Virus record (IMG/VR): IMGVR_UViG_3300044707_000482
Location: 1-63,053 of that record
Direction: 5' to 3' (one strand)
DNA length: 63,053 bases
Source: a virus
The notes under the pieces are model-generated. The model was not told where the DNA came from, did not search any database, and saw nothing but the letters and a program-made list of their open reading frames with translations. A program made the position numbers and the translations under genes. Positions 3,334-61,880 of this stretch are shown one piece after another (position 1 is the stretch's first letter; each line of letters begins with the position of its first letter).

Positions 3334-3855
3334 ATGCACCTCAGCCCCGAGCAGCAGCGTCTGGCAGAGCAAGCCATGGGCATTGTCCCAAAGGCGCTGG
3401 CAGCGTTTCGCTACCGATACCCATCTCTTCGCAAGCAGTACGCCCAGATCGACGCCCAGAGCGTGGCCTACCTAGCAATTTGCCGGGCTTCGGTAACGTA
3501 CGACGCCGCGAAGTCGCAGGTTACGACCTATTTCACCACTGCCATTCGCAACGCGATGCTCAAGGAGATCGACCGGAATCGCCGGGCGCGGTACGACTCT
3601 CCTGATCGGGTTCCGATGGAGATAGCGGAGGCCCTGGCGGTAGCGCCGAACAAGATCTCGGGCAGGCTCCAGGCGGCTGTTGCTCGCCTTCCTCCTAGGG
3701 CCAGGCGGCTGATTCACCTGCGATTCTTTCGCGGGCTAAGCCTCAGGGAGATAGGCGAGCAAGCAGGGCGTGATCCTAGGACAGTGAGGCGGCGGCTCGA
3801 CGACGCCTTGGAGCTTCTGCGAACTCTTTTGCAAAGCGAGCCTTTGCTGCCCTGA
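3334..3855 (+). CDS. Sigma-70 family RNA polymerase sigma factor
   Basis: 173 residues, the length of short alternative sigma factors. Residues about 35-85 look like region 2 (YLAICRASVTYDAAKSQVTT followed by NAMLKEIDR). Residues 118-166 form a region 4 helix-turn-helix (RARRLIHLRFFRGLSLREIG then RDPRTVRRRLDDAL). It should bind core RNA polymerase and redirect it to phage promoters; the TAGACT-N16-TAGRMT sites or the nine-copy leftward element are candidate targets (inference). Its 3' end overlaps the recombinase gene on the other strand by 80 bases. Confidence 0.85.
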   Translation: MHLSPEQQRLAEQAMGIVPKALAAFRYRYPSLRKQYAQIDAQSVAYLAICRASVTYDAAKSQVTTYFTTAIRNAMLKEIDRNRRARYDSPDRVPMEIAEALAVAPNKISGRLQAAVARLPPRARRLIHLRFFRGLSLREIGEQAGRDPRTVRRRLDDALELLRTLLQSEPLLP

Positions 3856-4522
3856 GTGCCCGAGTGATGCTGTTGATGTTCCAGCGGTAGCCGTTGGGCC
3901 TGCGCCACTTGTACACGTGGTGCGTGATGGCCTCCAGGCTGTAGCCATCACTGCGGAGAGACAGCATCTCGAGAACCTGCCGACGTTCCTCTTCGTCGGG
4001 CAGGTAGTAGGAGTCCTTGCCCTTGCCGAGCTTCTTCCAGCCGATGGGGGCGTGCTTATTGTGGGGCTTGCCAGCCTTCCGCTTGGCTTGCAGGCTGTCT
4101 CGCGTCCGCTCTCGGATGAACTCCAGTTCCAGTTCGGCAAAGGCCGTGAGGATCGTGAACACACACCGGCCGATGGGCGTGCTGGTGTCGAGGCCCATGT
4201 CGAGGGAGTTGAACGAGACGTCCTTGGCTTGGAGCAGCCGCATGGTCTGGGCTGCGTCCACGACGGAGCGGAAGGCCCGGTCGAGTTTGGCCCAGACGAT
4301 CTTGTCGCCGGGCTGGGCGAGTGCCCAGAGCTTGCGGCCCTCCTCGCGTTCGAACATGGGGCTGGAGCCGCTGGTGGCTGAGTCGTAGAGCCAGCCGCCA
4401 AAGGTGTAGCCCTCCGGCTGGAGGACTCGCTGCACGTACTCCTCACACTTGGCCCGTTGGTTGGCTTCGGTCAGGGTCTGTCGGCCGGTTGAGGCCCGGC
4501 CATAGGCGTAAACGATGGGCAT
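3776..4522 (-). CDS. Serine recombinase (resolvase/invertase family)
   Basis: 248 residues. The catalytic motif Y-x-R-x-S is at residues 7-11 (YGRAS). The resolvase core follows, with VWAKLDRAFRSVVDA and FAELELEFIRERTRDSL, matching the conserved DR..RS and ER..RT motifs. The C-terminal third should bind DNA. I chose the ATG at 4522 (MPIVYAYGRAS) because GAAAGGAGA precedes it. It is the last gene of the MoxR/VWA unit and converges on the sigma gene with an 80-base antisense overlap. Likely roles are integration, inversion or resolution of multimers. Confidence 0.93.
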   Translation of the reverse strand: MPIVYAYGRASTGRQTLTEANQRAKCEEYVQRVLQPEGYTFGGWLYDSATSGSSPMFEREEGRKLWALAQPGDKIVWAKLDRAFRSVVDAAQTMRLLQAKDVSFNSLDMGLDTSTPIGRCVFTILTAFAELELEFIRERTRDSLQAKRKAGKPHNKHAPIGWKKLGKGKDSYYLPDEEERRQVLEMLSLRSDGYSLEAITHHVYKWRRPNGYRWNINSITRALRAAKARFAKEFAEAPRRRRAAASLS

Positions 4523-6697: not shown

Positions 6698-6972
6698 GCT
6701 GTCCTCCCTTCTGCTTTGTTGATTGCGGATGTCGCCCGCCTCAAAGTCTCGGTTGTGGTTTGCTCAGGATGATCAAACCACTTGCATACCAGCGATAGTT
6801 CCTGCGCTGCCTCCTTCAGGGCAGCCAGCAACTCCGGCGCAGCGGCGATGACAAATCGATCCTCCCACCCCCTTGCAGCACGGCTGCTTTGGTAGTGAAT
6901 GCGGGCTATGTCGCCGTGATCGCTGCCAATGGTGTCGTTACTGACCACCCACGGCCCAGGTGTATGACTCAT
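6694..6972 (-). CDS. HTPGPW-motif phage protein (copy 2), 92 aa
   Basis: It begins MSHTPGPWVVSND and contains VIAAAPELLAALKEAA, the signature of a widespread small phage protein of unknown function. It is a tandem paralogue of the gene just upstream: the start overlaps the neighbour's stop by one base (TGATG). The 3' end overlaps the VWA gene's start, so the unit is translationally coupled. Confidence 0.85.
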   Translation of the reverse strand: MSHTPGPWVVSNDTIGSDHGDIARIHYQSSRAARGWEDRFVIAAAPELLAALKEAAQELSLVCKWFDHPEQTTTETLRRATSAINKAEGRTA

Positions 6973-7259
6973 CACTCCCTCCCTTCTGCTTTGGCGATGG
7001 CTGCGTCTGCGATGTTGCAGGCGTGGAACTTGGCAGCGCCATCTCCGTCTGTGTAGTTGCCGAACTGCATTCGCATAATCTTGAGTGCCTCCAGTAAGGC
7101 GGGGGCTGCGGCAATGAGCCGCACGTTGGCCGCCACTTCCGGGTTGGAGAGGTCGCGAGTTTTGCACGTAACAGTGGCTATCTCTCGCCACTGTGGGTAT
7201 GGCCTGTCCGAGATAATCGCGAAACCTCCGGAAGTCCAGGGGCCAGGTGTGTGTGTCAT
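6972..7259 (-). CDS. HTPGPW-motif phage protein (copy 1), 95 aa
   Basis: It begins MTHTPGPWTSGGFAI, and the C-terminal half carries NVRLIAAAPALLEALK, the same family as its neighbour. I chose ATG 7259, preceded by ACAGGAGACACG. Tandem copies are common for this family; the role is unknown. Confidence 0.85.
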   Translation of the reverse strand: MTHTPGPWTSGGFAIISDRPYPQWREIATVTCKTRDLSNPEVAANVRLIAAAPALLEALKIMRMQFGNYTDGDGAAKFHACNIADAAIAKAEGRE

Positions 7260-7282
7260 CGTCGTGTCTCCTGTGGGGTGTA

Positions 7283-8386
7283 TCACTGCTGAACCAACGC
7301 CATCAACTTCGTCAGCACAGCCTTCGGCGGGCTCCAGCCATCGGGCCGCACGCCGCCATTGCTGACGGGATTCCAGAGCGACTTGAACTGCATGAGGAAG
7401 GACTCGATCTCATGCCCGCCGACCTCGATGAACGCAGCGGCAGCGTTGAGCCACCGCTCGGGTGAGGTGTTGTCCCGCAGCCCCTTCACCAGCCCGGTGA
7501 GCAGGCAGATGTTGGCGTCGGGCCGGTTCTCGTAGGTGTAGGTCTCGTCACCCTCGAGGATGGACTCTGGATTGATGAGGTCGAGCCGGTGCCAGTACTG
7601 CAAGAACGATCCGCCCGCCGCCTCGCCCACGCAGCCGTGTGCCAGGGCTCGGTACATGGGATCCTTCCGCTCGTAACCGGCCGCGTCGGCCGCCGCAAAG
7701 CAGCGAACGAGGTACGTCCAAGTGCGGGGATTGGGGAACGCCATCGTCTCGTCGTCGATGGGCAACTTCTCCCGGCAGTCGGGGGCTGAGCGGAGGAACG
7801 CCTCCACCACACTGCCGAACTGCGGGAGCATGTCCTCCCAGTGCGACGGCACGACCGGGAACTCGGGGGCCGTCCACTTGCAGCCCGCCCGCAGGCCGGT
7901 GAACCAATGCTCGTAGTCCACCTGCCATTCGTAGTGGAAGAACCGGGCCCGCATCGCCGGTGCCAGGGGCACGGCATTGGGGCACAGTTCGGGCGGGTTG
8001 CACGACCCGACGATGATCGTGCTGGCTGGCATCACGTAGTCACCGACCCGCCGCTCGGAGATCACCGAGAGCAGGCCAGCCTGCGTGGCAGACGGCACGT
8101 TGGTGACCTCATCCACGTGGACGAGAGCCTTGCCGTCCATGGTCTTCTGCACCCACGAGGTGGGCATCATGTTGACGACGCCCGCCTTGTGGTTGGGGAT
8201 GGGGTAGCCCGAGAAGTCTTCGGGCAGGTGGGTGGCGCCGAGCAGCGGCACGAACGTGCGGCCCAGGGCGGCGGCCAGTGCCTCCCAGGTGGAGGACTTG
8301 CCGACGCCGGTGCCGCCACGAACGAGGGTGGGGACGACCTGGGCGGCGAGCAACGCGGGGGCGTTGCCAAGAGTTGAGCGAGCCAT
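7283..8386 (-). CDS. MoxR-type AAA+ ATPase
   Basis: 367 residues. Walker A is GGTGVGKSS at 24-32, Walker B is VHVDEV at 89-94, sensor-like SCNPPE follows at about 128-133, and a likely arginine finger is at RARF (about 146-149). MoxR ATPases work with VWA-domain partners as folding or activation factors; the partner is encoded three genes downstream at 5264-6697. The gene heads a seven-gene leftward unit whose 5' end carries the 16-bp element (8443-8458) and a stem-loop (8409-8436). The ribosome-binding site is CCGGAGG. Confidence 0.92.
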   Translation of the reverse strand: MARSTLGNAPALLAAQVVPTLVRGGTGVGKSSTWEALAAALGRTFVPLLGATHLPEDFSGYPIPNHKAGVVNMMPTSWVQKTMDGKALVHVDEVTNVPSATQAGLLSVISERRVGDYVMPASTIIVGSCNPPELCPNAVPLAPAMRARFFHYEWQVDYEHWFTGLRAGCKWTAPEFPVVPSHWEDMLPQFGSVVEAFLRSAPDCREKLPIDDETMAFPNPRTWTYLVRCFAAADAAGYERKDPMYRALAHGCVGEAAGGSFLQYWHRLDLINPESILEGDETYTYENRPDANICLLTGLVKGLRDNTSPERWLNAAAAFIEVGGHEIESFLMQFKSLWNPVSNGGVRPDGWSPPKAVLTKLMALVQQ

Positions 8387-8408: not shown

Positions 8409-8436
8409 GGGGCTGGGGCAACGTGCCGCCAGCCCC
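8409..8436 (-). promoter_or_regulatory. 5' stem-loop of the MoxR unit
   Basis: GGGGCTGG pairs with CCAGCCCC, and the inner bases GGCA/TGCC extend the helix. On the minus strand a CTTCTTTC tract follows. It could be an attenuator, a 5' protective hairpin or a terminator of the preceding unit. It lies between the 16-bp element and the ATG. Confidence 0.6.
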
Positions 8437-8442: not shown

Positions 8443-8458
8443 CCAGACTCCGCAGCGG
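8443..8458 (-). promoter_or_regulatory. 16-bp unit-head element, copy 9
   Basis: Minus-strand reading is CCGCTGCGGAGTCTGG, 15 bases after the stop of the 148-aa gene and ahead of the MoxR unit. A perfect match to the consensus of nine copies. Confidence 0.7.
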
Positions 8459-8473
8459 GAAAACAGGGGCGAT

Positions 8474-8920
8474 TCACACCCAGGTGGTGCGGGCCTCGCG
8501 GGTACGAATCCTGTGGCCGTCGAACTCATGACGCCACTTCTCGCCCTCCTCCCCCTGCCACTCGATGAACGATCCGTTGGTGACGAACGGGGCGAGGGCC
8601 GTGAGGAAGTACTCTTGGTCGCCGGTCTTGCTGTCATAGGACAGCGAGAGGATGTCCCCTGCCGGGCTTACCTCACAGTCGAAGCCGACCTCCGTCAGGA
8701 CTGCGACCAGATCCTTGCACTTCTCTGGGTAGTTGGGATCCATCCAACTGAACCACCTCTTGAGGCAGACGCTCGGCCCTCCGTCCGGCGGCGGTCCGTA
8801 CGATCCGCCGCCCTTGATCGAGTCGTTGCTGTTGAGGTCGCACAGCGCCTTGTACGCAGCCTCCTGCTTGTCCTTCGGTACGAACACGTTGCTGTTGGTG
8901 ATGCGAACGTAGTATCCCAT
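8474..8920 (-). CDS. Hypothetical protein, 148 aa
   Basis: It begins MGYYVRITNSNVFVPKDKQE, with a Gly-rich patch (KGGGSYGPPPDGGP) and several Trp residues (FSWMDPNYPEKC). It is soluble. Similar small proteins occur in plasmids and phages without known function. It is the last gene of the leftward unit that starts with the 24-aa peptide at 11141. Confidence 0.7.
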   Translation of the reverse strand: MGYYVRITNSNVFVPKDKQEAAYKALCDLNSNDSIKGGGSYGPPPDGGPSVCLKRWFSWMDPNYPEKCKDLVAVLTEVGFDCEVSPAGDILSLSYDSKTGDQEYFLTALAPFVTNGSFIEWQGEEGEKWRHEFDGHRIRTREARTTWV

Positions 8921-8947
8921 CGCTTGAAACTCCTTGGGTGGTGTCGG

Positions 8948-9817
8948 TCAGACAGATGTAGCGAGCAGACGGTTGACGGCAACCGCCGCCTTGGTCTGCT
9001 CGATGGCGTCGGTGAGGTCAGTGATCGGCCGCCCGAACAGCGACTCGTACTGCTGCACCTTGGCCAGGAACTTGTTGGCTCGGTCGAGCCGGACGTTGAT
9101 GCTGCGGTCGGTCATGCCACCGTGCGCCTCGTTGACGTCTTGCATGATGGCTGACAGGCCGATGGTCACCTCGTCTCGCAGCAACTCCATCACGTGAGCC
9201 ACCGTGTCGGGGTCGGAGCCGATCTCGAACTGCGTGACCGTGAACTTGGGGCCGTCTGTGCCACGCACATGCTTGGCGAACGCACGATACTGCTCCAGGA
9301 ACCGGCCGTCGAGGAACCACGCCCCGCCATCGTCCTTGAGCGAGACCGCACCCCACGACCGCAGCCCCTTGACCAGCACCTGCGAGATGACAGGGCCGGG
9401 TAGGTAGAGCCGCATGAGATCGACCTGTTGGGTGACGGCCTCATGCAGGGCATGCGATTGCACCTCGAAGTTCTCGTCCAGGATGTTGACCCGCCACTGC
9501 GTGTCAATGCTGGCAGAGAACAGGAAGCGGTAGTCGTTGCGGGCAGTGCTGGGCACAACACGCACGCACTCAAAGGCATTGGGTTCGTCCAGTTGCCGCA
9601 CGGTGATGGGCTGCTTGCGCTTCCTGCCATACAGGCGAGTGCCCTCCTCCAGCATGGCCGACCGCAGGGTTGTGGTCACGGCAGGAACGGGCGGCACGAA
9701 CCGCTCGATGCCAGCCAGTGAGGCCGCATCGTAGACCGCGTGCCGCAGTTGCCTGCGGGTAGAGAGCAGGCAGATACCACCGAGACCGGCACCGATCGTG
9801 ATGTTGTCGCGAGTCAT
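8948..9817 (-). CDS. Hypothetical protein, 289 aa
   Basis: I chose ATG 9817 (MTRDNITIGAGLGGICLLST) because GGAGTACACAC precedes it and the longer frame upstream overlaps the 66-aa gene. It is predicted alpha/beta and soluble, with a helical C-terminus. It resembles uncharacterised phage proteins of about 300 residues, but I cannot assign a family with confidence. It lies in the unit with the LexA-type regulator. Confidence 0.75.
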   Translation of the reverse strand: MTRDNITIGAGLGGICLLSTRRQLRHAVYDAASLAGIERFVPPVPAVTTTLRSAMLEEGTRLYGRKRKQPITVRQLDEPNAFECVRVVPSTARNDYRFLFSASIDTQWRVNILDENFEVQSHALHEAVTQQVDLMRLYLPGPVISQVLVKGLRSWGAVSLKDDGGAWFLDGRFLEQYRAFAKHVRGTDGPKFTVTQFEIGSDPDTVAHVMELLRDEVTIGLSAIMQDVNEAHGGMTDRSINVRLDRANKFLAKVQQYESLFGRPITDLTDAIEQTKAAVAVNRLLATSV

Positions 9818-9827
9818 GTGTGTACTC

Positions 9828-10028
9828 CTAGTGGGGAATGATGTCCTTGGCCGCACGAATGAACCGGCGTTCCAGCACGACGTACCGTGCTGCAACCTCC
9901 GGCTCATCGCAGTCCTCGCTGTCGGCGGCACTCTCAGCGAGGGAGTGGATGATGAGTTCGATCTCGTCTGGCCGCAGCGAGAACTGCACCTTGGGATACG
10001 TGGTCTCATCCCGAGCAATAGTGTACAT
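9828..10028 (-). CDS. Hypothetical protein, 66 aa
   Basis: A small acidic helical protein (VQFSLRPDEIELIIHSLAES then AADSEDCDEPEVAARYVVLE). The start is preceded by GAAAGGGTG. Neither end overlaps its neighbours. The pattern fits a small inhibitor-type or DNA-mimic protein, but this is speculation. Confidence 0.7.
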   Translation of the reverse strand: MYTIARDETTYPKVQFSLRPDEIELIIHSLAESAADSEDCDEPEVAARYVVLERRFIRAAKDIIPH

Positions 10029-10030
10029 GA

Positions 10031-10198
10031 TTACACCCTTTCAGCAATGGGCTCGAGCGTGCCGTGCCCGCCCTCCCAGTCGGCGGTGGACGGCAAGGCG
10101 TGCCCCGTGTAGATGACCACCTCGTTGTCCGGCCCCTCGTCGAACACGGCCTGCGGACAGAGGATGAGAATGCGGTCGATCAGTTCCTTGAGCGTCAT
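10031..10198 (-). CDS. Hypothetical protein, 55 aa
   Basis: This short frame opens with MTLKELIDRILILCPQAVFD and reads on with NEVVIYTGHAL, ending at TAA 10031-10033. A ribosome-binding site (GAAAGGAGTC) precedes it. The composition is normal for the genome and it fits exactly between its neighbours with no overlap, so it is real. It resembles small phage proteins with a helix followed by a beta hairpin (VVIYTG); the function is unknown. Confidence 0.75.
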   Translation of the reverse strand: MTLKELIDRILILCPQAVFDEGPDNEVVIYTGHALPSTADWEGGHGTLEPIAERV

Positions 10199-10210
10199 GC
10201 AAGACTCCTT

Positions 10211-10444
10211 TCAGAGGTAGGCGCGCCAGTCGAATGACAAAGCACGGGATCCCTTGGGCGATACGATTCCCTTCTTCCATAGCGACCGCACCAGCACGGT
10301 CACGTAGCCAGCACTGGCCCAGCCAAAGTGCTCGGCAATCTCACGGTACGAGGGCTGGAAGCCGTTCCGATCTACGGATCGGGCGACCAGACGGAGCAGC
10401 CGCTGCTCGGTAGCAGTCGGTGGCTTGCGTTGCTTGGTTTGCAC
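10211..10444 (-). CDS. LexA-type winged-helix DNA-binding protein, 77 aa
   Basis: Residues about 12-70 match the LexA N-terminal winged helix: LLRLVARSVDRNGFQPSYRE, IAEHFGWASAGYVTVLVRSL, then a wing ending GSRALSF. The peptidase half of LexA is absent. The start is GTG at 10444 after GAAAGGAGAATCGCC. A small repressor acting on host SOS or phage early promoters is likely. With two integrase-type enzymes in the genome, it is a candidate lysogeny or early-gene regulator. Confidence 0.8.
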   Translation of the reverse strand: MQTKQRKPPTATEQRLLRLVARSVDRNGFQPSYREIAEHFGWASAGYVTVLVRSLWKKGIVSPKGSRALSFDWRAYL

Positions 10445-10457
10445 GGCGATTCTCCTT

Positions 10458-10796
10458 TCAAAACAACCGCCAGCAGTACGACTGCACGTACGCCAGCAGT
10501 TCCGCATGCTCACTGATCGGGCATGCCTCGATGGCTTTGATGACGCGGTCGCAAGAGGCACTCAACTGGCTGGCGGCAGCACGGGAGCCGTCCATGCTGC
10601 TGTACAACTCCCACTCCGCCACGCCCTGCGGAGCGAGTGGTCGCAGACCTCTGGCCGCACGGTAGATGCGGGTCTGGAAGATACCGTCCGGCTCGGTGTC
10701 CATTGCACCGAAGGAACGCAAGTGAGACTGCGTCACTTCGAACTGGCGGATCGCTTCGCGAATGGCGTCAACGTGGGGCGTGGTGGTAGTGGACAT
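10458..10796 (-). CDS. Hypothetical protein, 112 aa
   Basis: The start is ATG 10796 (MSTTTTPHVDAIREA) with AACAAGGAGTTGAGC ahead. The product is mostly helical and soluble. No family recognised. It is immediately upstream of the LexA-type gene in the same unit. Confidence 0.7.
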   Translation of the reverse strand: MSTTTTPHVDAIREAIRQFEVTQSHLRSFGAMDTEPDGIFQTRIYRAARGLRPLAPQGVAEWELYSSMDGSRAAASQLSASCDRVIKAIEACPISEHAELLAYVQSYCWRLF

Positions 10797-10798
10797 GC

Positions 10799-11050
10799 TC
10801 AACTCCTTGTTGCTTGGGTGATGCTGTGGCACCGCTCGTCCGTGATGAACGCGGTCCCGCCGGACAGCGTGACGGTGCCCTTACCGGCCATGACTACATG
10901 CGGCTGCGACTTCCGCTCCCGTGTTCGCACGGGCACATGGCATTCGATGTGTCGCACGGTGTGGCAGCAGCCCTGACTGTGGACAGTCATGACTGGATGC
11001 CCCGCCTGCTTGGACGCAGGCTTGTTGTAGTGAAACCAAAACGCTGCCAT
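10799..11050 (-). CDS. Hypothetical protein, 83 aa
   Basis: A small protein with several Cys and His residues (GCCHTVRHIECHV then ERCHSI) that could bind a metal. The start follows AGGAGGGAGACG. The C-terminal half (VVMAGKGTVTLSGGTAFITD) looks like beta strands. The function is unknown. Confidence 0.65.
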   Translation of the reverse strand: MAAFWFHYNKPASKQAGHPVMTVHSQGCCHTVRHIECHVPVRTRERKSQPHVVMAGKGTVTLSGGTAFITDERCHSITQATRS

Positions 11051-11066
11051 CGTCTCCCTCCTTGCG

Positions 11067-11141
11067 TCAGCGTGACGCGCGTACGAGTTCCAGAATCAGT
11101 CGAACGATCAGCACAACCAGTTCCATCTGGTCAGGATTCAT
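11067..11141 (-). CDS. 24-residue amphipathic peptide
   Basis: A complete micro-gene with a strong ribosome-binding site (AAGGAGGCATGAC) and ATG 11141. Residues 6-21 form a hydrophobic or amphipathic helix (MELVVLIVRLILELVR). It is the first gene of an eight-gene unit, directly behind the 16-bp element and its stem-loop. It could be a membrane-active peptide or a leader peptide whose translation tunes the unit. Being short, it is less certain than longer genes. Confidence 0.55.
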   Translation of the reverse strand: MNPDQMELVVLIVRLILELVRASR

Positions 11142-11169
11142 GTCATGCCTCCTTGCATGGGTGGTGGGA

Positions 11170-11188
11170 CAGTGGGAACTTCCCACTG
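11170..11188 (-). promoter_or_regulatory. 5' stem-loop of the eight-gene unit
   Basis: A perfect inverted repeat of 9 bp, CAGTGGGAA / TTCCCACTG with a single-base loop, placed two bases after the 16-bp element on the minus strand. Confidence 0.65.
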
Positions 11189-11189
11189 A

Positions 11190-11205
11190 ACAGACTCCGC
11201 AGCGG
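11190..11205 (-). promoter_or_regulatory. 16-bp unit-head element, copy 8
   Basis: Minus-strand reading CCGCTGCGGAGTCTGT, one mismatch at the last base from the consensus. It heads the unit running from the 24-aa peptide to the 148-aa gene. Confidence 0.65.
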
Positions 11206-11223
11206 GAAAACGCCGGGAAAACG

Positions 11224-11949
11224 TCAGGCCAGGGCCGGGAGGGCCACCGAGAAGTCGTGCCCCGCCGCCGGTGCAGCCGCCTGCTTGCGGGCTGGCTCGG
11301 CAGGGCGGGTGCGGCTCTTGCGGGCGGGCTTGTCGGCGGGCTCTGGCTTCGGAGCCAGGGATCCTGGCCGGGCGGGGTACACGTGCGAGGTGACGCCGTC
11401 GTCGGCGGCCAGCGGCATGATGGCGAACCGTGCCACGTGCCCGTCCTCTCCCTGCGTTGCGGCGTACACGCAGGACGCTGCGTCCTTGACGAACAGGACA
11501 ATGCCCTTGCCCTTGGCTGTGTCGTCGTTCATGGCGTGCGACAGGCTGCACAGTTTGCCGAGCAGGGCTGCGTCCAGTTTGACGGAGGTGTAGCCATCCG
11601 GCTCGTCGTGAATCCGCATCACGCCCTCGCAGTTCGGGAACCTGCCGCTGGTGTTGATGGCGACGGCTCCCTTCGCCCCGCCCCGCAGTTCATCCCCGTC
11701 GAAGCGGACGCCGAGCGGATGGGCAAACGCCTTGACGGGCGGGGCTGCAAGATCCTTAGCGTGTGCGAGGGCATCCACCTCGATGCCGTCCTCGTCGTGC
11801 CAGTGGACGGTCGCCAGGATGCGGCCGTCGGTGGCGGCCATGCTTGCGGACTGGCCGTCGCTCTTGCACTGGATGCTGCCCAGTGCGTAGCCCGATGACT
11901 CGCCGTCGCAGATCCGGGCGAGTTGCTTGACAAACACAGGAAGTTTCAT
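11224..11949 (-). CDS. DNA polymerase III beta (sliding clamp)-like protein
   Basis: 241 residues. The first 170 look like part of a DnaN-type clamp: ASMAATDGRILATVHW near residue 35 (compare the clamp's ATDGxRLA), GRFPNCEGVMR near residue 100 (compare FPdYxxVIP), VKLDAALLGKLCSLS near 120, and a closing FAIMPLA like the clamp's IMPMR. The last 60 residues are a Lys/Ala/Pro-rich tail. The length is shorter than the three-domain bacterial clamp (about 366), so one or two domains are missing. It may recruit or compete for host clamp partners. The start is ATG 11949 after AAGGAGAACGCC. Confidence 0.7.
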   Translation of the reverse strand: MKLPVFVKQLARICDGESSGYALGSIQCKSDGQSASMAATDGRILATVHWHDEDGIEVDALAHAKDLAAPPVKAFAHPLGVRFDGDELRGGAKGAVAINTSGRFPNCEGVMRIHDEPDGYTSVKLDAALLGKLCSLSHAMNDDTAKGKGIVLFVKDAASCVYAATQGEDGHVARFAIMPLAADDGVTSHVYPARPGSLAPKPEPADKPARKSRTRPAEPARKQAAAPAAGHDFSVALPALA

Positions 11950-11973
11950 GGCGTTCTCCTTGGGTGAAAGAAA

Positions 11974-12006
11974 GCGGGGCCAGTGACCCAGTGTCACTGG
12001 CCCCGC
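11974..12006 (-). promoter_or_regulatory. 5' stem-loop of the clamp-like gene
   Basis: A very strong helix: GCGGGGCCAGTGA pairs with TCACTGGCCCCGC. On the minus strand it is followed by TTTCTTTC. It has all the marks of an intrinsic terminator or attenuator, but it lies downstream of the 16-bp element and before the clamp-like gene's ribosome-binding site. Confidence 0.75.
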
Positions 12007-12010
12007 AGAA

Positions 12011-12026
12011 CCAGACTCCGCAGCGG
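12011..12026 (-). promoter_or_regulatory. 16-bp unit-head element, copy 7
   Basis: Minus-strand CCGCTGCGGAGTCTGG, four bases after the stop of the glutamine amidotransferase gene and just before the stem-loop at 11974-12006. Confidence 0.7.
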
Positions 12027-12030
12027 GCAA

Positions 12031-12993
12031 TCACATGGCGTCGTGCAACGCCTCGATGCCGAAGTGGCCGAGCAACTCAAACACTTCCGTCAGGCACTGC
12101 TCGGTCAGCCCGTACATCCGCAGTTCCTGCCATCGAATGTCGGTGTACTGCTGCTCGTACTCGTCGGCCTCGTCCATCGTCCGCTTGTCGCCCTCGTAGG
12201 CGAGGTCGCCCGAGTACGGGTCGCGAATGAGCGTGCCCTCCTCGTCGATCGTCGTGACCCCTGCCTGCCGCTCGGCCAGCAGGTCGCCTGCGTCGGCGTC
12301 GAGATCGAACTCGATGGTCTTGGTGTCCATGACGGGCTCCTCTGCCTTGTCCTCGACGGGCAGGTAGCGAGCGCCGCTGGCACCGAGATAGCCGATCGGA
12401 TTGCTCGCCTTGCTGCCCGACCGACCGTAGTCGTACCACCGTGCATAGCGGGAGGACTCGTAGTCGGTGTTGCTGTACCAGTGGCCGTCGTTCGTCCAGT
12501 GGCCGTCTTCCTCGTTCCAGATGGCGTACTCGCCGTCCGCACGCAGGAAGCACAACTTGTTGCCGCGATGGGCTTGCTCCTGCGTGTAGATCATCTCCGG
12601 CCGGGTGAAGAAGTCCGGGTCATGCTTGTGCATGGGCTTGAGAACCAGCTCGTTGAAGTGCCACGTGTCCGAGCGGTCGGAGTGGACGTTGCACTTGATG
12701 GAAATGATGCCGTTGTGGATGACGGCAAGATCACGGGACACAAGGAACGGGTGGCAGTTGGCCACCGTGCGGGAGCCGTGCGTGGCCCAGCGGAAGTGAA
12801 TCACCGCTTGGCACTGGGCGTAGGGCTCGAGGGCGTGGCGGAACTCATCGAACTTGCCGACGCCGTGCTTGACAACGAGTTTGCCGTCTTGCACGGCGGC
12901 GAAGCCCCACGAATGGTCGTTGCTGTCGAAGCCGTTCTCGTAGGACTTCCAATCGACGGGCGTCTCGGCGGGCTTGTAGATTGCGAGGCACAT
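12031..12993 (-). CDS. Class II glutamine amidotransferase-like protein
   Basis: 320 residues. It opens with MCLAIYKP, so Cys2 would be the N-terminal nucleophile of an Ntn hydrolase. HFRWATHGSRTVANCHPF near residue 66 and DLAVIHNGIIS near 87 match the GATase type 2 substrate pocket. The C-terminal half (from about residue 150) is acidic and unrelated to known synthase domains. It would release ammonia from glutamine. It follows the amidoligase gene with no unit-head element between, so the two probably act together. The ribosome-binding site is AAGGAGACTCGCCC. Confidence 0.85.
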   Translation of the reverse strand: MCLAIYKPAETPVDWKSYENGFDSNDHSWGFAAVQDGKLVVKHGVGKFDEFRHALEPYAQCQAVIHFRWATHGSRTVANCHPFLVSRDLAVIHNGIISIKCNVHSDRSDTWHFNELVLKPMHKHDPDFFTRPEMIYTQEQAHRGNKLCFLRADGEYAIWNEEDGHWTNDGHWYSNTDYESSRYARWYDYGRSGSKASNPIGYLGASGARYLPVEDKAEEPVMDTKTIEFDLDADAGDLLAERQAGVTTIDEEGTLIRDPYSGDLAYEGDKRTMDEADEYEQQYTDIRWQELRMYGLTEQCLTEVFELLGHFGIEALHDAM

Positions 12994-13043
12994 GGGCGAG
13001 TCTCCTTGGGTGATGATGGTTGGATGAGCGAATCGGAAGGGAG

Positions 13044-14312
13044 TCAGGCAGACAAAGTCTCGGGGATCAGGGGGGTCAACTTAGGGAGGGGCCCGGCAAC
13101 CGAGTGGTAGAAGTCCGCGTACGCCGACCGATGGGCGCGGAACCACGCGTCCAGTTCGCGGTACTCGCGGCGAGCGTTGGTCCTGCCGAGCCAGATCAGG
13201 AAGTTCTGCCAGTTGAGTTCCTTCCGCTGGGCGGTTGACTGGACGCAGAAGTCACGGACTGCGAGGCAGTAGCACAGGTTCTTGAGGAGCGTGGGCAACT
13301 GGCAGGACGGACGGAAGATGCGGAACTCGACCGTCTCATCCTTGACGTTGAGGGCGGAATACTTCCGCCCGTCGTACGCCTTATTGGGCAGGCCGTTGCT
13401 CACGAACCTGCGATGCTCGAAGAACTCCGCGTACGAGGTCACGCGACCGGCGACGTCAACGTGGAACGCAGTGTTGCCGGGATCATGGATGAAGCACAGC
13501 ATCTTGCCGAGCGTCAGGTTCGACAGGCTCTTGCGGTTGAGGTGAACGTGCATGCCGCACTTCGTCTTGTTCCACGCCGACACCGCACCCTTGCCGAGCC
13601 GCCCGCCAGGGAACGCCTTCTCCAGCACCTTGCGATGCTCGTCGAGCGTCATCGGCACGGTCACGAACTCCACGCCGGTCTCGTCCGGCAGAGATCCGTC
13701 CTGCTTGGCAATCGCACCGCGACCCGTGCGGGTCTTGTTCACGGTCGCCTTGTAAGCCGCATCGAAGGGGCCAAGCAGTGCTGCGGCCCCTTCGTTTGCG
13801 TTCGTGGCCGAGATGCACTCGAACTCGAACGCAACGGTGGGCGATGTCCGCTTGTAGGACAGGTTCCGCCAGCCCGTTTCTTCCAGGACGCACGCATCGC
13901 TGTCGAGCAGTTCGTCGTGGCCGCCAGTGCAGCGGTCGCAGAAATCGTCATCGCAGACCCCGTTGTCGCAGCGGGTATTGCCGTGCCGATCCTCGTTGTC
14001 CTCGTCGTACCCGTCGGTGTCGTACCCATCCCGGTCGAAGCCGTTGCAGTCGTACCCTTCGCGGTCATAGCCAGCGTCGTCGAATGGGCTGCCGTCCGCC
14101 GTGAACCCGCGACGATTGAACACCGTGCCCGTGAGGCGGTGGTGCCCGTCGCGGTGGAAGTCTTCGGCGTTGTAGCCCTCAGCATTGAATCCTTCGTGGT
14201 CGTGGCCATCGACGTCGAACCCGTTGCGGTCGTACCCCTCCGCATCGAAGCCCAGGGCGTTGAACCCCTCCGCATCGAACCCGTTCTCGTCGTACTGAAC
14301 TTCCTCGTTCAT
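13044..14312 (-). CDS. Amidoligase-family enzyme with N-terminal GFD repeats
   Basis: 422 residues. Residues 5-110 hold about a dozen repeats of the form (D/N)-x-x-GF/Y-(D/N), for example NGFDAEGFNALGFDAEGYD, a low-complexity acidic extension. Next come a Cys-rich patch (CDNGVCDDDFCDRC) and then the catalytic part with VAFEFECIS, GVEFVTVP, KCGMHVHLN and TVEFRIFRPS, which match the amidoligase_2 family (glutamine-synthetase-like COOH-NH2 ligases). Such enzymes make amide or peptide bonds on small molecules, proteins or cell-wall parts. I chose ATG 14312 because GTGGAGGATTCC precedes it. The partner GATase lies just downstream. Confidence 0.85.
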   Translation of the reverse strand: MNEEVQYDENGFDAEGFNALGFDAEGYDRNGFDVDGHDHEGFNAEGYNAEDFHRDGHHRLTGTVFNRRGFTADGSPFDDAGYDREGYDCNGFDRDGYDTDGYDEDNEDRHGNTRCDNGVCDDDFCDRCTGGHDELLDSDACVLEETGWRNLSYKRTSPTVAFEFECISATNANEGAAALLGPFDAAYKATVNKTRTGRGAIAKQDGSLPDETGVEFVTVPMTLDEHRKVLEKAFPGGRLGKGAVSAWNKTKCGMHVHLNRKSLSNLTLGKMLCFIHDPGNTAFHVDVAGRVTSYAEFFEHRRFVSNGLPNKAYDGRKYSALNVKDETVEFRIFRPSCQLPTLLKNLCYCLAVRDFCVQSTAQRKELNWQNFLIWLGRTNARREYRELDAWFRAHRSAYADFYHSVAGPLPKLTPLIPETLSA

Positions 14313-14336
14313 GGAATCCTCCACAGGAAAAAAGAA

Positions 14337-14360
14337 AGGCCGCCCCACAAGGGACGGCCT
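14337..14360 (-). promoter_or_regulatory. 5' stem-loop of the amidoligase unit
   Basis: AGGCCGTCCC pairs with GGGGCGGCCT (with one G-U), followed on the minus strand by TTCTTTTTT, an intrinsic-terminator-like structure located between the 16-bp element and the amidoligase start. Confidence 0.7.
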
Positions 14361-14370
14361 GCACCGAACT

Positions 14371-14386
14371 CCAGACTCCGCAGCGG
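14371..14386 (-). promoter_or_regulatory. 16-bp unit-head element, copy 6
   Basis: Minus-strand CCGCTGCGGAGTCTGG, four bases after the stop of the 42-aa basic peptide gene; heads the amidoligase-GATase unit. Confidence 0.7.
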
Positions 14387-14390
14387 CGAA

Positions 14391-14519
14391 CTACCGCTGC
14401 TTCTTCTTGACCCGCTTCAACTTCTTGCGGGCCTCACGACACGTGCGTTCCTCCTTGACGCGCTCCGCCTTGACGAGACGCCACCATGCGTCGTTCCACG
14501 CCTGCTGCTTGGTTCCCAC
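14391..14519 (-). CDS. Small basic protein, 42 aa
   Basis: It starts with GTG at 14519, overlapping the TAG of the upstream gene (TAGTG), so it is translationally coupled. The product is short, helical and strongly basic, with a Lys/Arg-rich end (KKLKRVKKKQR) that suggests nucleic-acid binding. It ends four bases before the unit-head element at 14371-14386. I know of no family. Confidence 0.65.
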   Translation of the reverse strand: MGTKQQAWNDAWWRLVKAERVKEERTCREARKKLKRVKKKQR

Positions 14520-14959
14520 TAGGCGGAACCCAGTGCGTGAAGAAACACGCCAGCGTCAGCGGCCAGAGCCTGTGCCTTCATTGCATCCATGCTGGCGTTC
14601 AGGCCACGCCTGCCATCAAAGATCGCATCGCCAAGCAGGGAGCGGCTCTGCTCCAGATACTCGATGAGATCCGCCTTGCGTATGACACGGCACACCATCT
14701 CGCAGCCGTCCCACTCGCCCTCCACCGTGCGCCCGGATACCGAGCCAACCCACTGGCTTTCGGTTCTGTTGGTGCGGGGATTGTGCAGATACCACACGCT
14801 GGGGCTGCTTGCGGACTTGGTGACAATCGTTACGTCACCAAGTCCGCGACAAGAGCGCGTCCGCAGGGCACTGATCGCGGCCTCGCGTGTCGTGAACACG
14901 CCGAACACGTTCTCGCCTGCGTCACTCGACTCCATCGCAATGAACACGGTGTTCGTCAT
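14519..14959 (-). CDS. Hypothetical protein, 146 aa
   Basis: It begins MTNTVFIAMESSDAGENVFG, which resembles small phage proteins that start with a beta hairpin and helix. The ribosome-binding site is AAGGAGGGCTGAACC. The C-terminal half is helical (SLLGDAIFDGRRGLNASMDA). The function is unknown. It is the middle gene of a three-gene unit. Confidence 0.7.
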   Translation of the reverse strand: MTNTVFIAMESSDAGENVFGVFTTREAAISALRTRSCRGLGDVTIVTKSASSPSVWYLHNPRTNRTESQWVGSVSGRTVEGEWDGCEMVCRVIRKADLIEYLEQSRSLLGDAIFDGRRGLNASMDAMKAQALAADAGVFLHALGSA

Positions 14960-14962
14960 GGT

Positions 14963-15136
14963 TCAGCCCTCCTTCCTTGCAATGAGGGCGGCAATCTCGG
15001 CCCGCTCCTTGCCCGTGAGCGTGCGGAAATCCTTGAGGAACTCCTTGCGGGAGCGAGCCCCGAGTGCCTTGCTCGCTTCCCGGAGCGAGACGAAGTGCAT
15101 GAGGCGGGGATTGGGGACGTTGCTGTGAGTGCGCAT
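14963..15136 (-). CDS. Hypothetical protein, 57 aa
   Basis: The start is ATG 15136 after ACAGGAGAGATGCC. The product is basic and helical (RKEFLKDFRTLTGKERAEIA). It is the first gene of the unit headed by element copy 5. No known family. Confidence 0.7.
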   Translation of the reverse strand: MRTHSNVPNPRLMHFVSLREASKALGARSRKEFLKDFRTLTGKERAEIAALIARKEG

Positions 15137-15196
15137 GGCATCTCTCCTGTAGGGAACCATCGAACAAGGCGACCGGAACACCCGGCCTGCCAGAAA

Positions 15197-15212
15197 CCAG
15201 ACTCCGCAGCGG
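15197..15212 (-). promoter_or_regulatory. 16-bp unit-head element, copy 5
   Basis: Minus-strand CCGCTGCGGAGTCTGG, just after the stop of the 76-aa gene. A stem-loop follows (GGCAGGCCGG paired with CCGGTCGCC, roughly 15168-15191), then the 57-aa gene. Confidence 0.7.
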
Positions 15213-15216
15213 CAAA

Positions 15217-15447
15217 TCAGCGGAGGTTCCGCTTGGCCGCAGGCTGCGGGGTCAACACCGCATCGAGCCAGCGGTCGATGTCGAGGTTCTCTGCCACCTC
15301 GACCGCACGGGTGAGCGTGCGATACGGCCCCATCACGGGCGTCTGCTCGCTGATGAGATCAAGCAGATAGAACCCGTCCTTGCACTCGAACACTTCCGCC
15401 TGAGCGATACCGCCATCACGAACCACGAACGTCTTGTCACCGGCCAT
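15217..15447 (-). CDS. Hypothetical protein, 76 aa
   Basis: ATG 15447 follows TTTGGAGGGTTTTCCC. The sequence (KTFVVRDGGIAQAEVFECKD, then YRTLTRAVEVAENLD) suggests a small beta-alpha fold. It forms a single-gene unit between element copies 4 and 5. The function is unknown. Confidence 0.7.
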   Translation of the reverse strand: MAGDKTFVVRDGGIAQAEVFECKDGFYLLDLISEQTPVMGPYRTLTRAVEVAENLDIDRWLDAVLTPQPAAKRNLR

Positions 15448-15540
15448 GGGAAAACCCTCCAAACGTGGAAACGAACACGCCCACCGCGAAGTGCGATGGG
15501 CGAACCTGCGAGTGCAGGATTGGGGGCAGTGGCAGTCCTG

Positions 15541-15556
15541 CCAGACTCCGCAGCGG
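15541..15556 (-). promoter_or_regulatory. 16-bp unit-head element, copy 4
   Basis: Minus-strand CCGCTGCGGAGTCTGG, a few bases after the stop of the 135-aa gene. Two hairpins follow before the 76-aa gene: GCAGGA with TCCTGC right at the end of the element, and GCCCATCG with CGGTGGGC further down. Confidence 0.7.
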
Positions 15557-15559
15557 GAA

Positions 15560-15967
15560 TCACTCGGCCTGGAGTTGGACATGGGCGAGCATGTCCTTGG
15601 CCGCCTCGCTGCGGATGGCGACGAACAGGGCACGGGCGAGATCCGCACGCATCGAGCCGCCGTACTCGCCGTTCACCCACACGGGAACCCACGTGCGGCC
15701 CTTCTTGTCCTTCTGGCCCGCACCCATCGCGATCCCGCCCGCGAACTCCTCCTTGGCGACCTTGGGCTTGTCAGCCTTCGCGGGAGCGGCCTTCGTGGCC
15801 TTAGCCTTCGCGGGAGCGGTCGCCTTCTGCGACTCACGCCACTTGGCCAGAGCCTCCGGGTTGCCCTTACGCTTGCCCTTCGGCTTCGCGGCAACCGCAG
15901 GGGCATCCTCGACACCAACCAGAGCCATCAGACCCTTGAGCAAAGCGTTCTTTTCGGCAGCAGTCAT
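15560..15967 (-). CDS. Lys/Ala-rich DNA-binding-like protein, 135 aa
   Basis: A short helical start (AAEKNALLKGLMALVGVEDA) is followed by a Lys/Ala/Pro-rich middle that resembles histone H1-type or linker tails (ATAPAKAKATKAAPAKADKP), then a compact C-terminal part (GRTWVPVWVNGEYGGSMRAD). Nucleic-acid binding is likely from composition only. The start is ATG 15967 after TTGGAGGATGATCCC. Single-gene unit. Confidence 0.7.
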   Translation of the reverse strand: MTAAEKNALLKGLMALVGVEDAPAVAAKPKGKRKGNPEALAKWRESQKATAPAKAKATKAAPAKADKPKVAKEEFAGGIAMGAGQKDKKGRTWVPVWVNGEYGGSMRADLARALFVAIRSEAAKDMLAHVQLQAE

Positions 15968-16023
15968 GGGATCATCCTCCAACAAGGAACCATCGAACCG
16001 TCCGTGCAACATGCAACGGACAC

Positions 16024-16066
16024 GTGAGGGAGCCGGAGTCGAACCGGCTCTTCGACCATCCCCCAC
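16024..16066 (-). ncRNA. tRNA-minihelix-like leader
   Basis: On the minus strand an 8-bp stem (GTGGGGGA with TCCCTCAC, one G-U) encloses a 10-nt linker and a perfect T-arm: stem GCCGG/CCGGC with loop TTCGACT. That is an acceptor stem plus T-arm without D- and anticodon arms, as if a tRNA had lost its lower half. It takes the place of the plain stem-loop found behind the other elements. A second hairpin (GTCCGT/ACGGAC) lies between it and the 135-aa gene. Confidence 0.5.
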
Positions 16067-16069
16067 CAA

Positions 16070-16085
16070 CCAGACTCCGCAGCGG
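16070..16085 (-). promoter_or_regulatory. 16-bp unit-head element, copy 3
   Basis: Minus-strand CCGCTGCGGAGTCTGG, a few bases after the stop of the 67-aa gene and directly before the tRNA-minihelix-like structure. Confidence 0.7.
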
Positions 16086-16088
16086 GAA

Positions 16089-16292
16089 TCAACGGTCGAT
16101 CACGACACGGCGAGGCTCAGGCCGACGCTCCATCGGCACATAGCCTTCGGGCTGCTCGTCGGTCGTGATGAGGTTGAACACGCCCATCCACTCGCGTGTC
16201 GTGCCGCCGCCCAACGCAGGGTTCTTGCGGGCCACACGACGCTCGCGACGATTGTTCCGTCCGTCGCCTACGGTCACCGGCTTGCTATCCAT
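16089..16292 (-). CDS. Hypothetical Arg-rich protein, 67 aa
   Basis: ATG 16292 lies behind GTGGAGGACGACCG, the same ribosome-binding region that precedes the next gene upstream. The N-terminal part is rich in Arg and Asn (DGRNNRRERRVARKNP), followed by GGTTREWMGVFNLITTDEQ. The function is unknown. Single-gene unit between copies 2 and 3. Confidence 0.7.
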   Translation of the reverse strand: MDSKPVTVGDGRNNRRERRVARKNPALGGGTTREWMGVFNLITTDEQPEGYVPMERRPEPRRVVIDR

Positions 16293-16351
16293 CGGTCGTC
16301 CTCCACACATCGAGACATCGAACACGGCAGCCGAACGTCGGCCACCGAAAA

Positions 16352-16367
16352 CCAGACTCCGCAGCGG
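16352..16367 (-). promoter_or_regulatory. 16-bp unit-head element, copy 2
   Basis: Minus-strand CCGCTGCGGAGTCTGG, five bases after the stop of the 77-aa gene; followed by a stem-loop (GGCCGA/TCGGC with flanking pairs, roughly 16325-16348). Confidence 0.7.
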
Positions 16368-16372
16368 GCTTT

Positions 16373-16606
16373 TCAGCAGATGGGACGGGCAACGACACGC
16401 TGGGCGGCGAGATCCCATTCGTACCGGTACAGGTCGATCTGCTTGCCCTCGCGTGCCATGTCGCAGACACAGGCGAACACGGCACGCATCACGAAGCCGA
16501 AGCCGCGATAGATTGGCGTCCAGTCCATGTCGTCGATGTGATAGACAGCGATCTCGCCGGCGTTGACATTGCAGGAAATCGTGTAGCCGTTGATGACGAA
16601 GGTCAT
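16373..16606 (-). CDS. Hypothetical protein, 77 aa
   Basis: First gene of the leftward arm. It reads MTFVINGYTISCNVNAGEIA with a middle VYHIDDMDWTPIYRGFGFVM and several Cys. It is soluble, probably an alpha/beta mix. The ribosome-binding site is TGGAGGACGACCG. No family recognised. Confidence 0.7.
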   Translation of the reverse strand: MTFVINGYTISCNVNAGEIAVYHIDDMDWTPIYRGFGFVMRAVFACVCDMAREGKQIDLYRYEWDLAAQRVVARPIC

Positions 16607-16665
16607 CGGTCGTCCTCCATGTCGGTAACGTGACGGTCACTCGCCGTCGATCGTTCCGACACAAA

Positions 16666-16681
16666 CCAGACTCCGCAGCGA
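16666..16681 (-). promoter_or_regulatory. 16-bp unit-head element, copy 1
   Basis: Minus-strand TCGCTGCGGAGTCTGG, one mismatch at the first base. No leftward gene lies upstream of it, only the divergent gap, so it belongs to the 5' end of a unit rather than to the 3' end of the previous gene. This copy is the key evidence for a promoter or 5'-leader role. Confidence 0.7.
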
Positions 16682-16881
16682 ACGGACAGCGGATAAAAGG
16701 CGGATCGCGGCCCGGGTTCACGCCCTTCCTCGTGACCGTGAAACGGAAGTCGTTTGCCGCCCTGTAGATAGAACGCGTTGGAGCCTTCGGCTCCCCATGC
16801 CCCCCCGTCGCGTCACGCCTAGAGTTACGTTCCCCTCCTGGATTTTTTCGCCGTTTCATTGGCCCCCTCCTGCATAGGGGG

Positions 16882-16909
16882 TTGCTGGACTCCCGTCCAC
16901 CGCTACACT
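16882..16909 (+). promoter_or_regulatory. Sigma-70-like promoter for SSB
   Basis: TTGCTG (16882-16887), a 16-base spacer, and TACACT (16904-16909), about 40 bases before the SSB start. The 16-base spacing is the same as in the three TAGACT promoters. Confidence 0.45.
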
Positions 16910-16949
16910 GGGCGCCTGTCCAGATGCCTCTGAGTGAAAGGAGATCCCA

Positions 16950-17324
16950 GTGATTCAAGGAACGGTGACGGGCAACGTCGGCAAGGATCCCGTGCTGCGT
17001 ACCACGCAGTCGGGCAAGCAGGTGGCGTCGTTTTCGGTGGCTTCGACCGCCAAGAAGGACGGGCCGACGACCTGGGTGGATGTGGTCTGCTTTGACGAGC
17101 AGGCCGATGTGGTGTCGCAGCGGATCAAGAAGGGCGACCGGGTCGTAGTGACGGGCCGGTTTGGCCTGGAGACCTACGAGAAGCGTGACGGCTCCCAGGG
17201 GACTTCCCTGCGGTTGCTGGCCGACGAGGTGGGTCACAGTCTCCGGTGGCCCAAGCGGGAGACTGTTGGGGCGGCGGTGGCCGACGATGGGGAAGTCGGC
17301 GGCGGCGACGAAGTTCCCTTCTGA
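16950..17324 (+). CDS. ssb: Single-stranded DNA-binding protein
   Basis: 124 residues. The OB fold is clear: MIQGTVTGNVGKDPVLR, then QVASFSVAST, TTWVDVVCFDEQAD and GDRVVVTGRFGLETYEKRDG. The acidic tip GGDEVPF resembles the SSB tail that recruits repair and replication proteins. The start is GTG 16950 after GAAAGGAGATCCCA. It would coat single-stranded DNA in replication and recombination, and may work with the ERF protein, exonuclease and helicase encoded far downstream. Confidence 0.95.
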   Translation: MIQGTVTGNVGKDPVLRTTQSGKQVASFSVASTAKKDGPTTWVDVVCFDEQADVVSQRIKKGDRVVVTGRFGLETYEKRDGSQGTSLRLLADEVGHSLRWPKRETVGAAVADDGEVGGGDEVPF

Positions 17325-61276: not shown

Positions 61277-61290
61277 TAGGAGATATCGCA

Positions 61291-61596: not shown

Positions 61597-61657
61597 ACGC
61601 ACTAATCTTGCGACGGAACTATCAAGCGATCCTTGATGGTTGCCGACCAAACAGGCG

Positions 61658-61685: not shown

Positions 61686-61692
61686 AGGCGGC

Positions 61693-61873: not shown

Positions 61874-61880
61874 GGCGGGC

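What the first reader, a model, noticed from the sequence alone, without database searches (positions are those of the whole stretch)
8443..16681. Nine copies of a 16-bp element, each heading one leftward transcription unit and followed by a different stem-loop
CCGCTGCGGAGTCTGG (minus-strand reading) occurs at 8443, 11190, 12011, 14371, 15197, 15541, 16070, 16352 and 16666, seven times without mismatch and twice with one. Every leftward unit between 3.8 and 16.6 kb starts with one. Copy 1 has no upstream gene, so the element belongs to the 5' end of units. Directly behind it comes a stem-loop of unrelated sequence but similar placement (for example 11974-12006 and 11170-11188), some with U-tracts. 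This looks like a uniform early-gene expression system: a novel promoter class, or a promoter plus attenuator/antitermination leader. I know of no described phage promoter with this sequence.
Basis: partly seen in the sequence, partly recalled or inferred. Interest (0 to 1): 0.85.

Follow-up and report, generated by a model that had tools for sequence, protein, structure and literature searches.

The report
Phage sigma-factor promoters with terminal hairpins
The repeated 16-letter DNA motif is most likely the start signal for a set of virus genes, read by a sigma factor that the virus itself encodes, and nearly every copy is followed at once by a hairpin that would sit at the very tip of the resulting RNA; the kind of switch is known, but this version and its combination with hairpins appear undescribed.

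Summary
In detail: nine one-strand copies, seven exact, two with one mismatch. The motif is not private to this phage. About 25 related uncultivated phage contigs carry 3-14 copies each, nearly always in short gaps ahead of same-strand genes (121 of 130 distinct sites). Across 122 deduplicated sites a pyrimidine-purine step lies exactly 7 bases after the core (112/122; next best offset 47/122), and a stem-loop begins at that base. This is the signature of a promoter whose transcript starts with a 5'-terminal hairpin. The window encodes an ECF-like sigma factor (3334-3855), found in all multi-copy relatives except two fragments. Deeper relatives use different elements at the same places, uniform within each genome, and their sigma factors fall in a separate clade. 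Best reading: promoters of a phage-encoded sigma factor, as in phiEco32 and 7-11, each coupled to a hairpin that probably protects the mRNA; 'early' is not supported. No experiment was possible; sigma-element recognition and start sites are inferred. A conserved terminator just behind some promoters remains unexplained.

The parts
16666..16681 (-). element copy 1 (TCGCTGCGGAGTCTGG); inferred transcript start about 16660; heads gene 16373-16606
16621..16660 (-). leader stem-loop of copy 1 (GTCGG...CCGAC), ends just before the ribosome-binding site
   Evidence: identical sequence in L040
16352..16367 (-). element copy 2, exact; inferred start about 16346; heads gene 16089-16292
16326..16346 (-). 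leader stem-loop of copy 2
   Evidence: L040
16070..16085 (-). element copy 3, exact; inferred start about 16064; heads gene 15560-15967
16026..16064 (-). leader stem-loop of copy 3, with a tRNA T-arm-like GGTTCGACTCC hairpin
15541..15556 (-). element copy 4, exact; heads gene 15217-15447; weakest leader structure and no pyrimidine-purine step at the usual offset
15478..15502 (-). stem-loop further down the leader of copy 4
15197..15212 (-). element copy 5, exact; inferred start about 15191; heads genes 14963-15136, 14519-14959, 14391-14519
15168..15191 (-). leader stem-loop of copy 5
   Evidence: L040
14371..14386 (-). element copy 6, exact; inferred start about 14365; heads amidoligase-like 13044-14312 and class-II amidotransferase-like 12031-12993
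14337..14360 (-). leader stem-loop of copy 6 followed by TTTCTTTTTT: terminator-like, conserved in an alignment of 12 phages
12011..12026 (-). element copy 7, exact; inferred start 12005-12006; heads gene 11224-11949
11974..12006 (-). leader stem-loop of copy 7 followed by TTTCTTT: terminator-like
11190..11205 (-). element copy 8 (CCGCTGCGGAGTCTGT); inferred start about 11184; heads the genes 11142 down to 8474, including LexA-like 10211-10444
11170..11188 (-). leader stem-loop of copy 8
8443..8458 (-). element copy 9, exact; inferred start about 8437; heads the MoxR-like ATPase 7283-8386 and the genes down to the recombinase 3776-4522
8409..8436 (-). leader stem-loop of copy 9; its orthologues show covariation
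3334..3855 (+). ECF-like sigma factor, 173 aa, regions 2 and 4; the proposed reader of the element; convergent with the leftward block
   Evidence: Pfam PF04545 and PF04542 and NCBIfam TIGR02937 above cut-off; Foldseek matches are sigma factors
3776..4522 (-). serine recombinase at the far end of the leftward block
16950..17324 (+). single-strand binding protein, divergent from copy 1

Best explanation
Each copy is the core of a promoter recognised by host RNA polymerase carrying the phage-encoded ECF-like sigma factor (3334-3855). Transcription starts 7 bases after the last core base, at a purine after a pyrimidine, so the conserved AGTCTG covers -12 to -7 and CGCTGCGG lies directly upstream of it. 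The transcript begins with a stem-loop whose 5' arm mostly starts within 1-2 bases of its end; because the stem is conserved while its sequence is not, its job is probably structural, most likely protection of the mRNA 5' end against 5'-end-dependent decay. Nine such promoters drive the leftward block as a regulon switched on after the sigma factor, itself in the rightward gene set, has been made. Shown by computation: conserved motif, fixed start-like signature, leader structure with covariation, co-occurrence and joint divergence with the sigma factor. Inferred: that this sigma factor reads it, the exact start sites, the timing, and the protective role.
For: (1) 112 of 122 deduplicated sites have pyrimidine-purine exactly at offset 19/20 from the core start; other tested offsets reach at most 47. 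In clades with another element, 23 of 23 sites have it at one fixed offset per genome. Bases 15-17 and 19 are T-rich in a 63% G+C genome. (2) 5'-arm pairing probability jumps from 0.25 at position 19 to 0.50 at 20 and 0.63 at 21; leader folding z averages -2.8 against -0.36 for the upstream control. (3) 121 of 130 sites are intergenic, mostly 55-115 bases from the next start codon, while about 15% of the window's leftward block is intergenic. (4) The sigma homologue is in 15 of 17 multi-copy contigs; the two without are a fragment ending near the block and a 15.6-kb fragment; it is in 0 of 8 contigs with one chance match. All 7 deeper relatives carry it too. (5) The element changes in concert: CCGATCCGGAGTC x7 in G027, CCGATGCGGAGTC in G028, TTTCAGGGGYCGGCGA-type in G026/G030/G031, TTTCAGGCACTGGAGAACATC in G032, at equivalent gene starts; the sigma tree splits the A-type from the B/C-type genomes with support 100/98. 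(6) The other transcription-like regulator, a LexA-like HTH, was not detected in G005 and G028, which have the element, nor in the B/C genomes. (7) No sigma-70-type promoter was found in 8.3-17.1 kb; no single-subunit RNA polymerase was detected in nine genomes, a weak negative because the control rang nowhere either.
Against: No experiment: neither start sites nor sigma binding were measured. Co-occurrence and joint divergence follow shared ancestry and do not prove recognition; other proteins shared by all genomes are not excluded. The motif is one contiguous 15-16 base block with only a weak G+C-rich box and T-rich stretch upstream (positions -12 to -4 of the core), unusual for a sigma factor that has a region 4. 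In the window only 6 of 9 copies have the step at exactly offset 20. About a quarter of leaders have a T-tract behind the stem (28/122), strange directly after a promoter. Conserved blocks also lie upstream of copy 1, so a separate upstream promoter is not excluded. Fine branching among A-type variants does not follow the sigma tree (6 changes).
Confidence: 0.77

Rival explanations
1. The element acts as RNA: a linear box plus hairpin in a longer transcript, bound by a phage protein for antitermination (lambda nut or HK022 put style), processing or translational control.
For: Always one orientation, usually 1-7 bases after the upstream stop codon, followed by a stem-loop; some leaders have conserved terminators. 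Concerted change per genome fits any trans-acting reader. Conserved blocks upstream of copy 1 could be a promoter.
Against: It gives no reason for the fixed pyrimidine-purine step at the hairpin start or for T-enrichment just before it. The stems differ in sequence from unit to unit, unlike a boxB-type site. Copy 1 heads the block without any upstream gene. No sigma-70-type promoter was found in the block.
Confidence: 0.11
2. Promoter read by something other than the phage sigma factor: a host alternative sigma factor, or host sigma plus a phage activator bound at the conserved block.
For: One contiguous block abutting the -10 position could be an activator site. The host is unknown, so host sigma factors could not be tested.
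Against: A sigma gene in every sufficiently complete relative, with element classes that follow its deep clades. The LexA-like HTH is not universal. A host-read promoter would not be expected to change in all copies of a genome at once.
Confidence: 0.08
3. Repressor-binding stoperators, as in mycobacteriophages L5 and Bxb1 (known to me from memory): short asymmetric sites in intergenic gaps, one orientation, at which a repressor halts elongation.
For: Same placement and single orientation; a LexA-like HTH protein and a serine recombinase exist.
Against: The LexA-like protein was not detected in two genomes with the A-type element. Stoperators do not predict a start signature or a hairpin in register with the site.
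Confidence: 0.03
4. Ordinary repeats or terminators of the upstream units, with the element only a neighbour.
For: Some stem-loops have T-tracts and lie just after stop codons.
Against: Copy 1 has no upstream gene; most stems lack a T-tract (94 of 122); the element is far more conserved than the stems and is shared by many phages.
Confidence: 0.01

Closest known systems
phiEco32 gp36-dependent promoters
   Same: Phage-encoded sigma factor directs host polymerase to several near-identical promoters with a single conserved block; starts 6-8 bases downstream (PMC8948821). Here the inferred start is 7 bases after the core.
   Different: phiEco32's block is tAATGTAtA, A+T-rich, and gp36 lacks recognisable region 4; here the block is 15-16 bases, G+C-rich, and the sigma factor has region 4. 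The passages read describe no hairpin paired with every promoter. No record in the INPHARED collection encodes a detectable relative of this sigma factor.
Phage 7-11 gp47-dependent late promoters
   Same: Phage sigma factor with region 4; promoters at equivalent genome places in relatives but with different sequence where sigma has diverged (PMC8948821).
   Different: Bipartite consensus GTAAtg-(16)-aCTA; a hairpin is reported only ahead of the sigma gene itself.
5'-terminal stem-loop mRNA stabilisers (E. coli ompA, papA; T4 gene 32)
   Same: A stem-loop at the extreme 5' end; RppH and RNase E need single-stranded 5' ends (PMC3997798).
   Different: Described for individual mRNAs; here nearly every unit of a regulon has one, in fixed register with the promoter. 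No stability data; host unknown.
Cluster K mycobacteriophage SAS/ESAS and Cluster O 17-bp repeats
   Same: Short conserved sequences repeated near gene starts in a phage clade, some with inverted repeats (PMC3203893, PMC4351075).
   Different: SAS is named for its tie to translation starts and ESAS has a sequence-conserved inverted repeat; the Cluster O repeat is palindromic and often inside genes. Here the element is asymmetric, mostly about 55-115 bases from the start codon, and the stems vary freely.

Membership tests
Promoters of a phage-encoded sigma factor | A sigma factor gene in the same genome | tested here: met
   3334-3855: PF04545 41.5 bits (cut-off 24.1), PF04542 24.4 (cut-off 24), TIGR02937 64.9 (cut-off 42.9); Foldseek matches are sigma factors, model of moderate confidence
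Promoters of a phage-encoded sigma factor | Several near-identical sites ahead of genes, same strand, mostly intergenic | tested here: met
   9 in the window; 121 of 130 sites in relatives intergenic
Promoters of a phage-encoded sigma factor | Start site 6-9 bases downstream of the element | tested here: inconclusive
   Pyrimidine-purine step at exactly 7 bases in 112 of 122 sites; no transcript mapped
Promoters of a phage-encoded sigma factor | Element sequence changes with the sigma factor between lineages | tested here: met
   Different elements, uniform per genome, in separate deep sigma clades; not resolved at fine scale
Promoters of a phage-encoded sigma factor | Transcription in vitro by the sigma holoenzyme | not testable with these tools
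   needs protein and DNA
Canonical ECF promoters (GGAAC -35, spacer, GTC -10) | Two separate motifs with a 16-17 base spacer | tested here: not met
   Logo shows one contiguous block, no GGAAC box at the proper distance
Single-subunit (T7-type) RNA polymerase promoters | A single-subunit polymerase in the genome | tested here: inconclusive
   PF00940 found in none of 9 genomes, but the control rang nowhere; large proteins scanned by Pfam show none
Lambda-type nut sites | boxA followed by a boxB hairpin bound in a sequence-specific way | tested here: not met
   No boxA-like core; hairpins of the nine units differ in sequence
Stoperators | Cognate repressor conserved with the sites | tested here: not met
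   LexA-like HTH, the only repressor-like candidate found, was not detected in some genomes with the element; another repressor is not excluded
5'-terminal stem-loop mRNA stabilisers | Stem begins within a few bases of the 5' end | tested here: inconclusive
   First paired base at +1 or +2 in 91 of 122 leaders given the inferred start; the start is not measured
5'-terminal stem-loop mRNA stabilisers | Removing the stem shortens mRNA half-life | not testable with these tools
   experiment needed

The most novel reading that the evidence does not exclude
A phage lineage has built a whole regulon from one standard module: a compact promoter without a normal -35 box, read by its own sigma factor with region 4 used in an unusual way, an obligatory hairpin at the first transcribed base, and, at some units, an intrinsic terminator about 30 bases in that polymerase carrying this sigma factor (or a phage factor) must pass, which would make it a sigma-linked antitermination system.
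Probability: 0.2. Interest if true: 0.75.

Novelty: new variant of a known kind. Interest (0 to 1): 0.6.

Why it matters
If true, it gives an undescribed phage sigma-promoter family with dozens of natural promoters in at least three recognition classes, so that sigma-promoter co-evolution can be tested by swapping. It would also be a case in which nearly every mRNA of a regulon begins with a hairpin, and it gives a motif for finding and ordering the genes of uncultivated phages.

Tried and rejected
Rfam: no match in the window. ARAGORN: no tRNA, though one leader resembles a T-arm. T7-type polymerase: not found, weak negative. Sigma relatives in isolate phages: none; in bacterial genomes only one 37-residue match, so the host stays unknown. 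LexA-like HTH as reader: rejected, not universal. Canonical ECF or sigma-70 promoters: rejected. Element as a stop-codon-coupled signal: rejected because copy 1 has no upstream gene and other copies lie 10-34 bases or more away. Literature search for the sequence: no paper. Claim that nothing conserved lies upstream of copy 1: tested and dropped, because other conserved blocks are there.
Full report
WHAT IS THERE. The nine copies exist as described, only on the minus strand, in the leftward block 3.8-16.7 kb of a 63,053-base uncultivated virus record. The inner 14-mer CGCTGCGGAGTCTG is exact in all nine. Rightward genes carry none.

HOW WIDESPREAD. Scanning the viral collection for the exact 16-mer returned 50 stretches of DNA. 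Chance probably accounts for the contigs with one match. The rest, about 25 contigs, carry 3-14 copies on one strand in one cluster of genes. My own gene calls (a simple codon-usage script trained on the window, so approximate) put 121 of 130 distinct sites between genes on the strand of the next gene, with the core end mostly 55-115 bases from the start codon. Three of the nine in-gene cases are the same place near the 3' end of one orthologous gene.

START SIGNATURE. A logo of 122 sites, deduplicated at 75% identity, shows the core C-CGCTGCGGAGTCTG, then a T-rich stretch, then a pyrimidine-purine step. Step counts by offset: 112/122 at offset 20, at most 47 at any other tested offset. If that purine is +1, AGTCTG occupies -12 to -7. 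The window's nine copies have it in six cases, and two of the other three are off by one base.

LEADER HAIRPINS. The 45 bases after the inferred start fold much better than dinucleotide-shuffled versions (mean z -2.8; 93 of 122 below -1.5) and better than the control stretch upstream (mean z -0.36). The 5'-arm pairing probability rises sharply at the same base. Leaders ahead of the MoxR-like gene from 16 phages show changes on both sides at 9 of 15 pairs, 26 cells against 8.8 in shuffles, and sliding the partner removes the signal. G-U pairs are tolerated, so the structure is probably read as RNA rather than DNA. Different units carry unrelated stems, so shape and position rather than sequence are conserved. 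28 of 122 leaders have at least 5 T in 8 bases after the stem; the one ahead of the amidoligase-like gene is conserved in an alignment of 12 phages. Why a terminator should stand about 30 bases behind a promoter is not explained.

The window encodes a 173-residue sigma factor with regions 2 and 4. The AlphaFold model is of moderate confidence (mean pLDDT 75.5, pTM 0.50) and its PDB matches are sigma factors and sigma complexes. The gene lies about 40 bases behind the previous rightward ORF and overlaps the end of the leftward block tail to tail. It is in 15 of 17 multi-copy contigs; the two without it are fragments. A deeper search found relatives with 46-71% sigma identity. G027 uses CCGATCCGGAGTC at seven places, G028 CCGATGCGGAGTC; G026, G030 and G031 use CCCCTG-W-TTTCAGGGGYCGGCGA-type elements, G032 TTTCAGGCACTGGAGAACATC. 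These stand at equivalent places, for example ahead of the MoxR-like gene in the B-type genomes, and most are followed by stem-loops. All seven deeper contigs carry the sigma homologue, and the sigma tree separates the A-type genomes from the B/C-type genomes with support 100/98. Within the A-type genomes the variants do not sort cleanly on the tree, so co-evolution is shown only at the deep split. Concerted change in all copies of a genome is what a trans-acting reader produces. The LexA-like HTH protein is not present throughout.

COMPARISON. phiEco32's gp36 uses a single-block promoter with starts 6-8 bases downstream, and 7-11's gp47 a bipartite one at similar genome places (PMC8948821). 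The present system works like these and meets most of the features that could be tested. It differs in its long G+C-rich block despite a region 4, and in the regular 5'-terminal hairpin. Single-stranded 5' ends are needed by RppH and RNase E (PMC3997798), hence the proposed protective role; this is inference.

TIMING. A promoter needing a phage-made sigma factor is unlikely to be immediate-early. Rightward genes (ssb, recombination and helicase genes, sigma) may come first. This is inference; a possible ssb promoter (TTGCTG-16-TACACT) was seen only by eye.

LIMITS. All evidence is comparative. Sites in related phages are not independent, though units within a genome largely are. The host is unknown.

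Noticed in passing
1-1864 and 60934-62797: An exact 1,864-base direct repeat near the two ends; after it the last 256 bases of the record differ from 1865-2120. The genome is probably circular or terminally redundant, with a variant or assembly fault at the end.
   Followed up: partly
16026-16064: Leader of copy 3 contains GAGCCGGTTCGACTCCGGCTC, resembling a tRNA T-arm; relatives keep similar hairpins (L018 GCAGGTTCGACTCCTGC, L084 CTGGTTCGACTCCAG). Possible mimic or coincidence.
   Followed up: no
12031-14312: An amidoligase-like gene next to a class-II glutamine amidotransferase-like gene (weak matches); the first begins with many copies of a short YDxxGFD-like repeat.
   Followed up: no
5264-8386: MoxR-like AAA ATPase followed by a metallopeptidase/VWA (DUF2201) protein; the ATPase is kept in deeply diverged relatives.
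   Followed up: no
16682-16949: The divergent region between copy 1 and ssb has further blocks conserved among relatives (GGGGAACGTAACT...ACGTG, TTCACGCT...) that may be other promoters or regulatory sites.
   Followed up: partly
L004, L015, L022, L086, L089: A second copy of the element inside the 3' end of the gene orthologous to 11224-11949, about 140 bases before another copy; meaning unknown.
   Followed up: no
L121: A short relative contig with a sigma homologue in which no element was recognised upstream of the ATPase gene; a fourth element class is possible.
   Followed up: no
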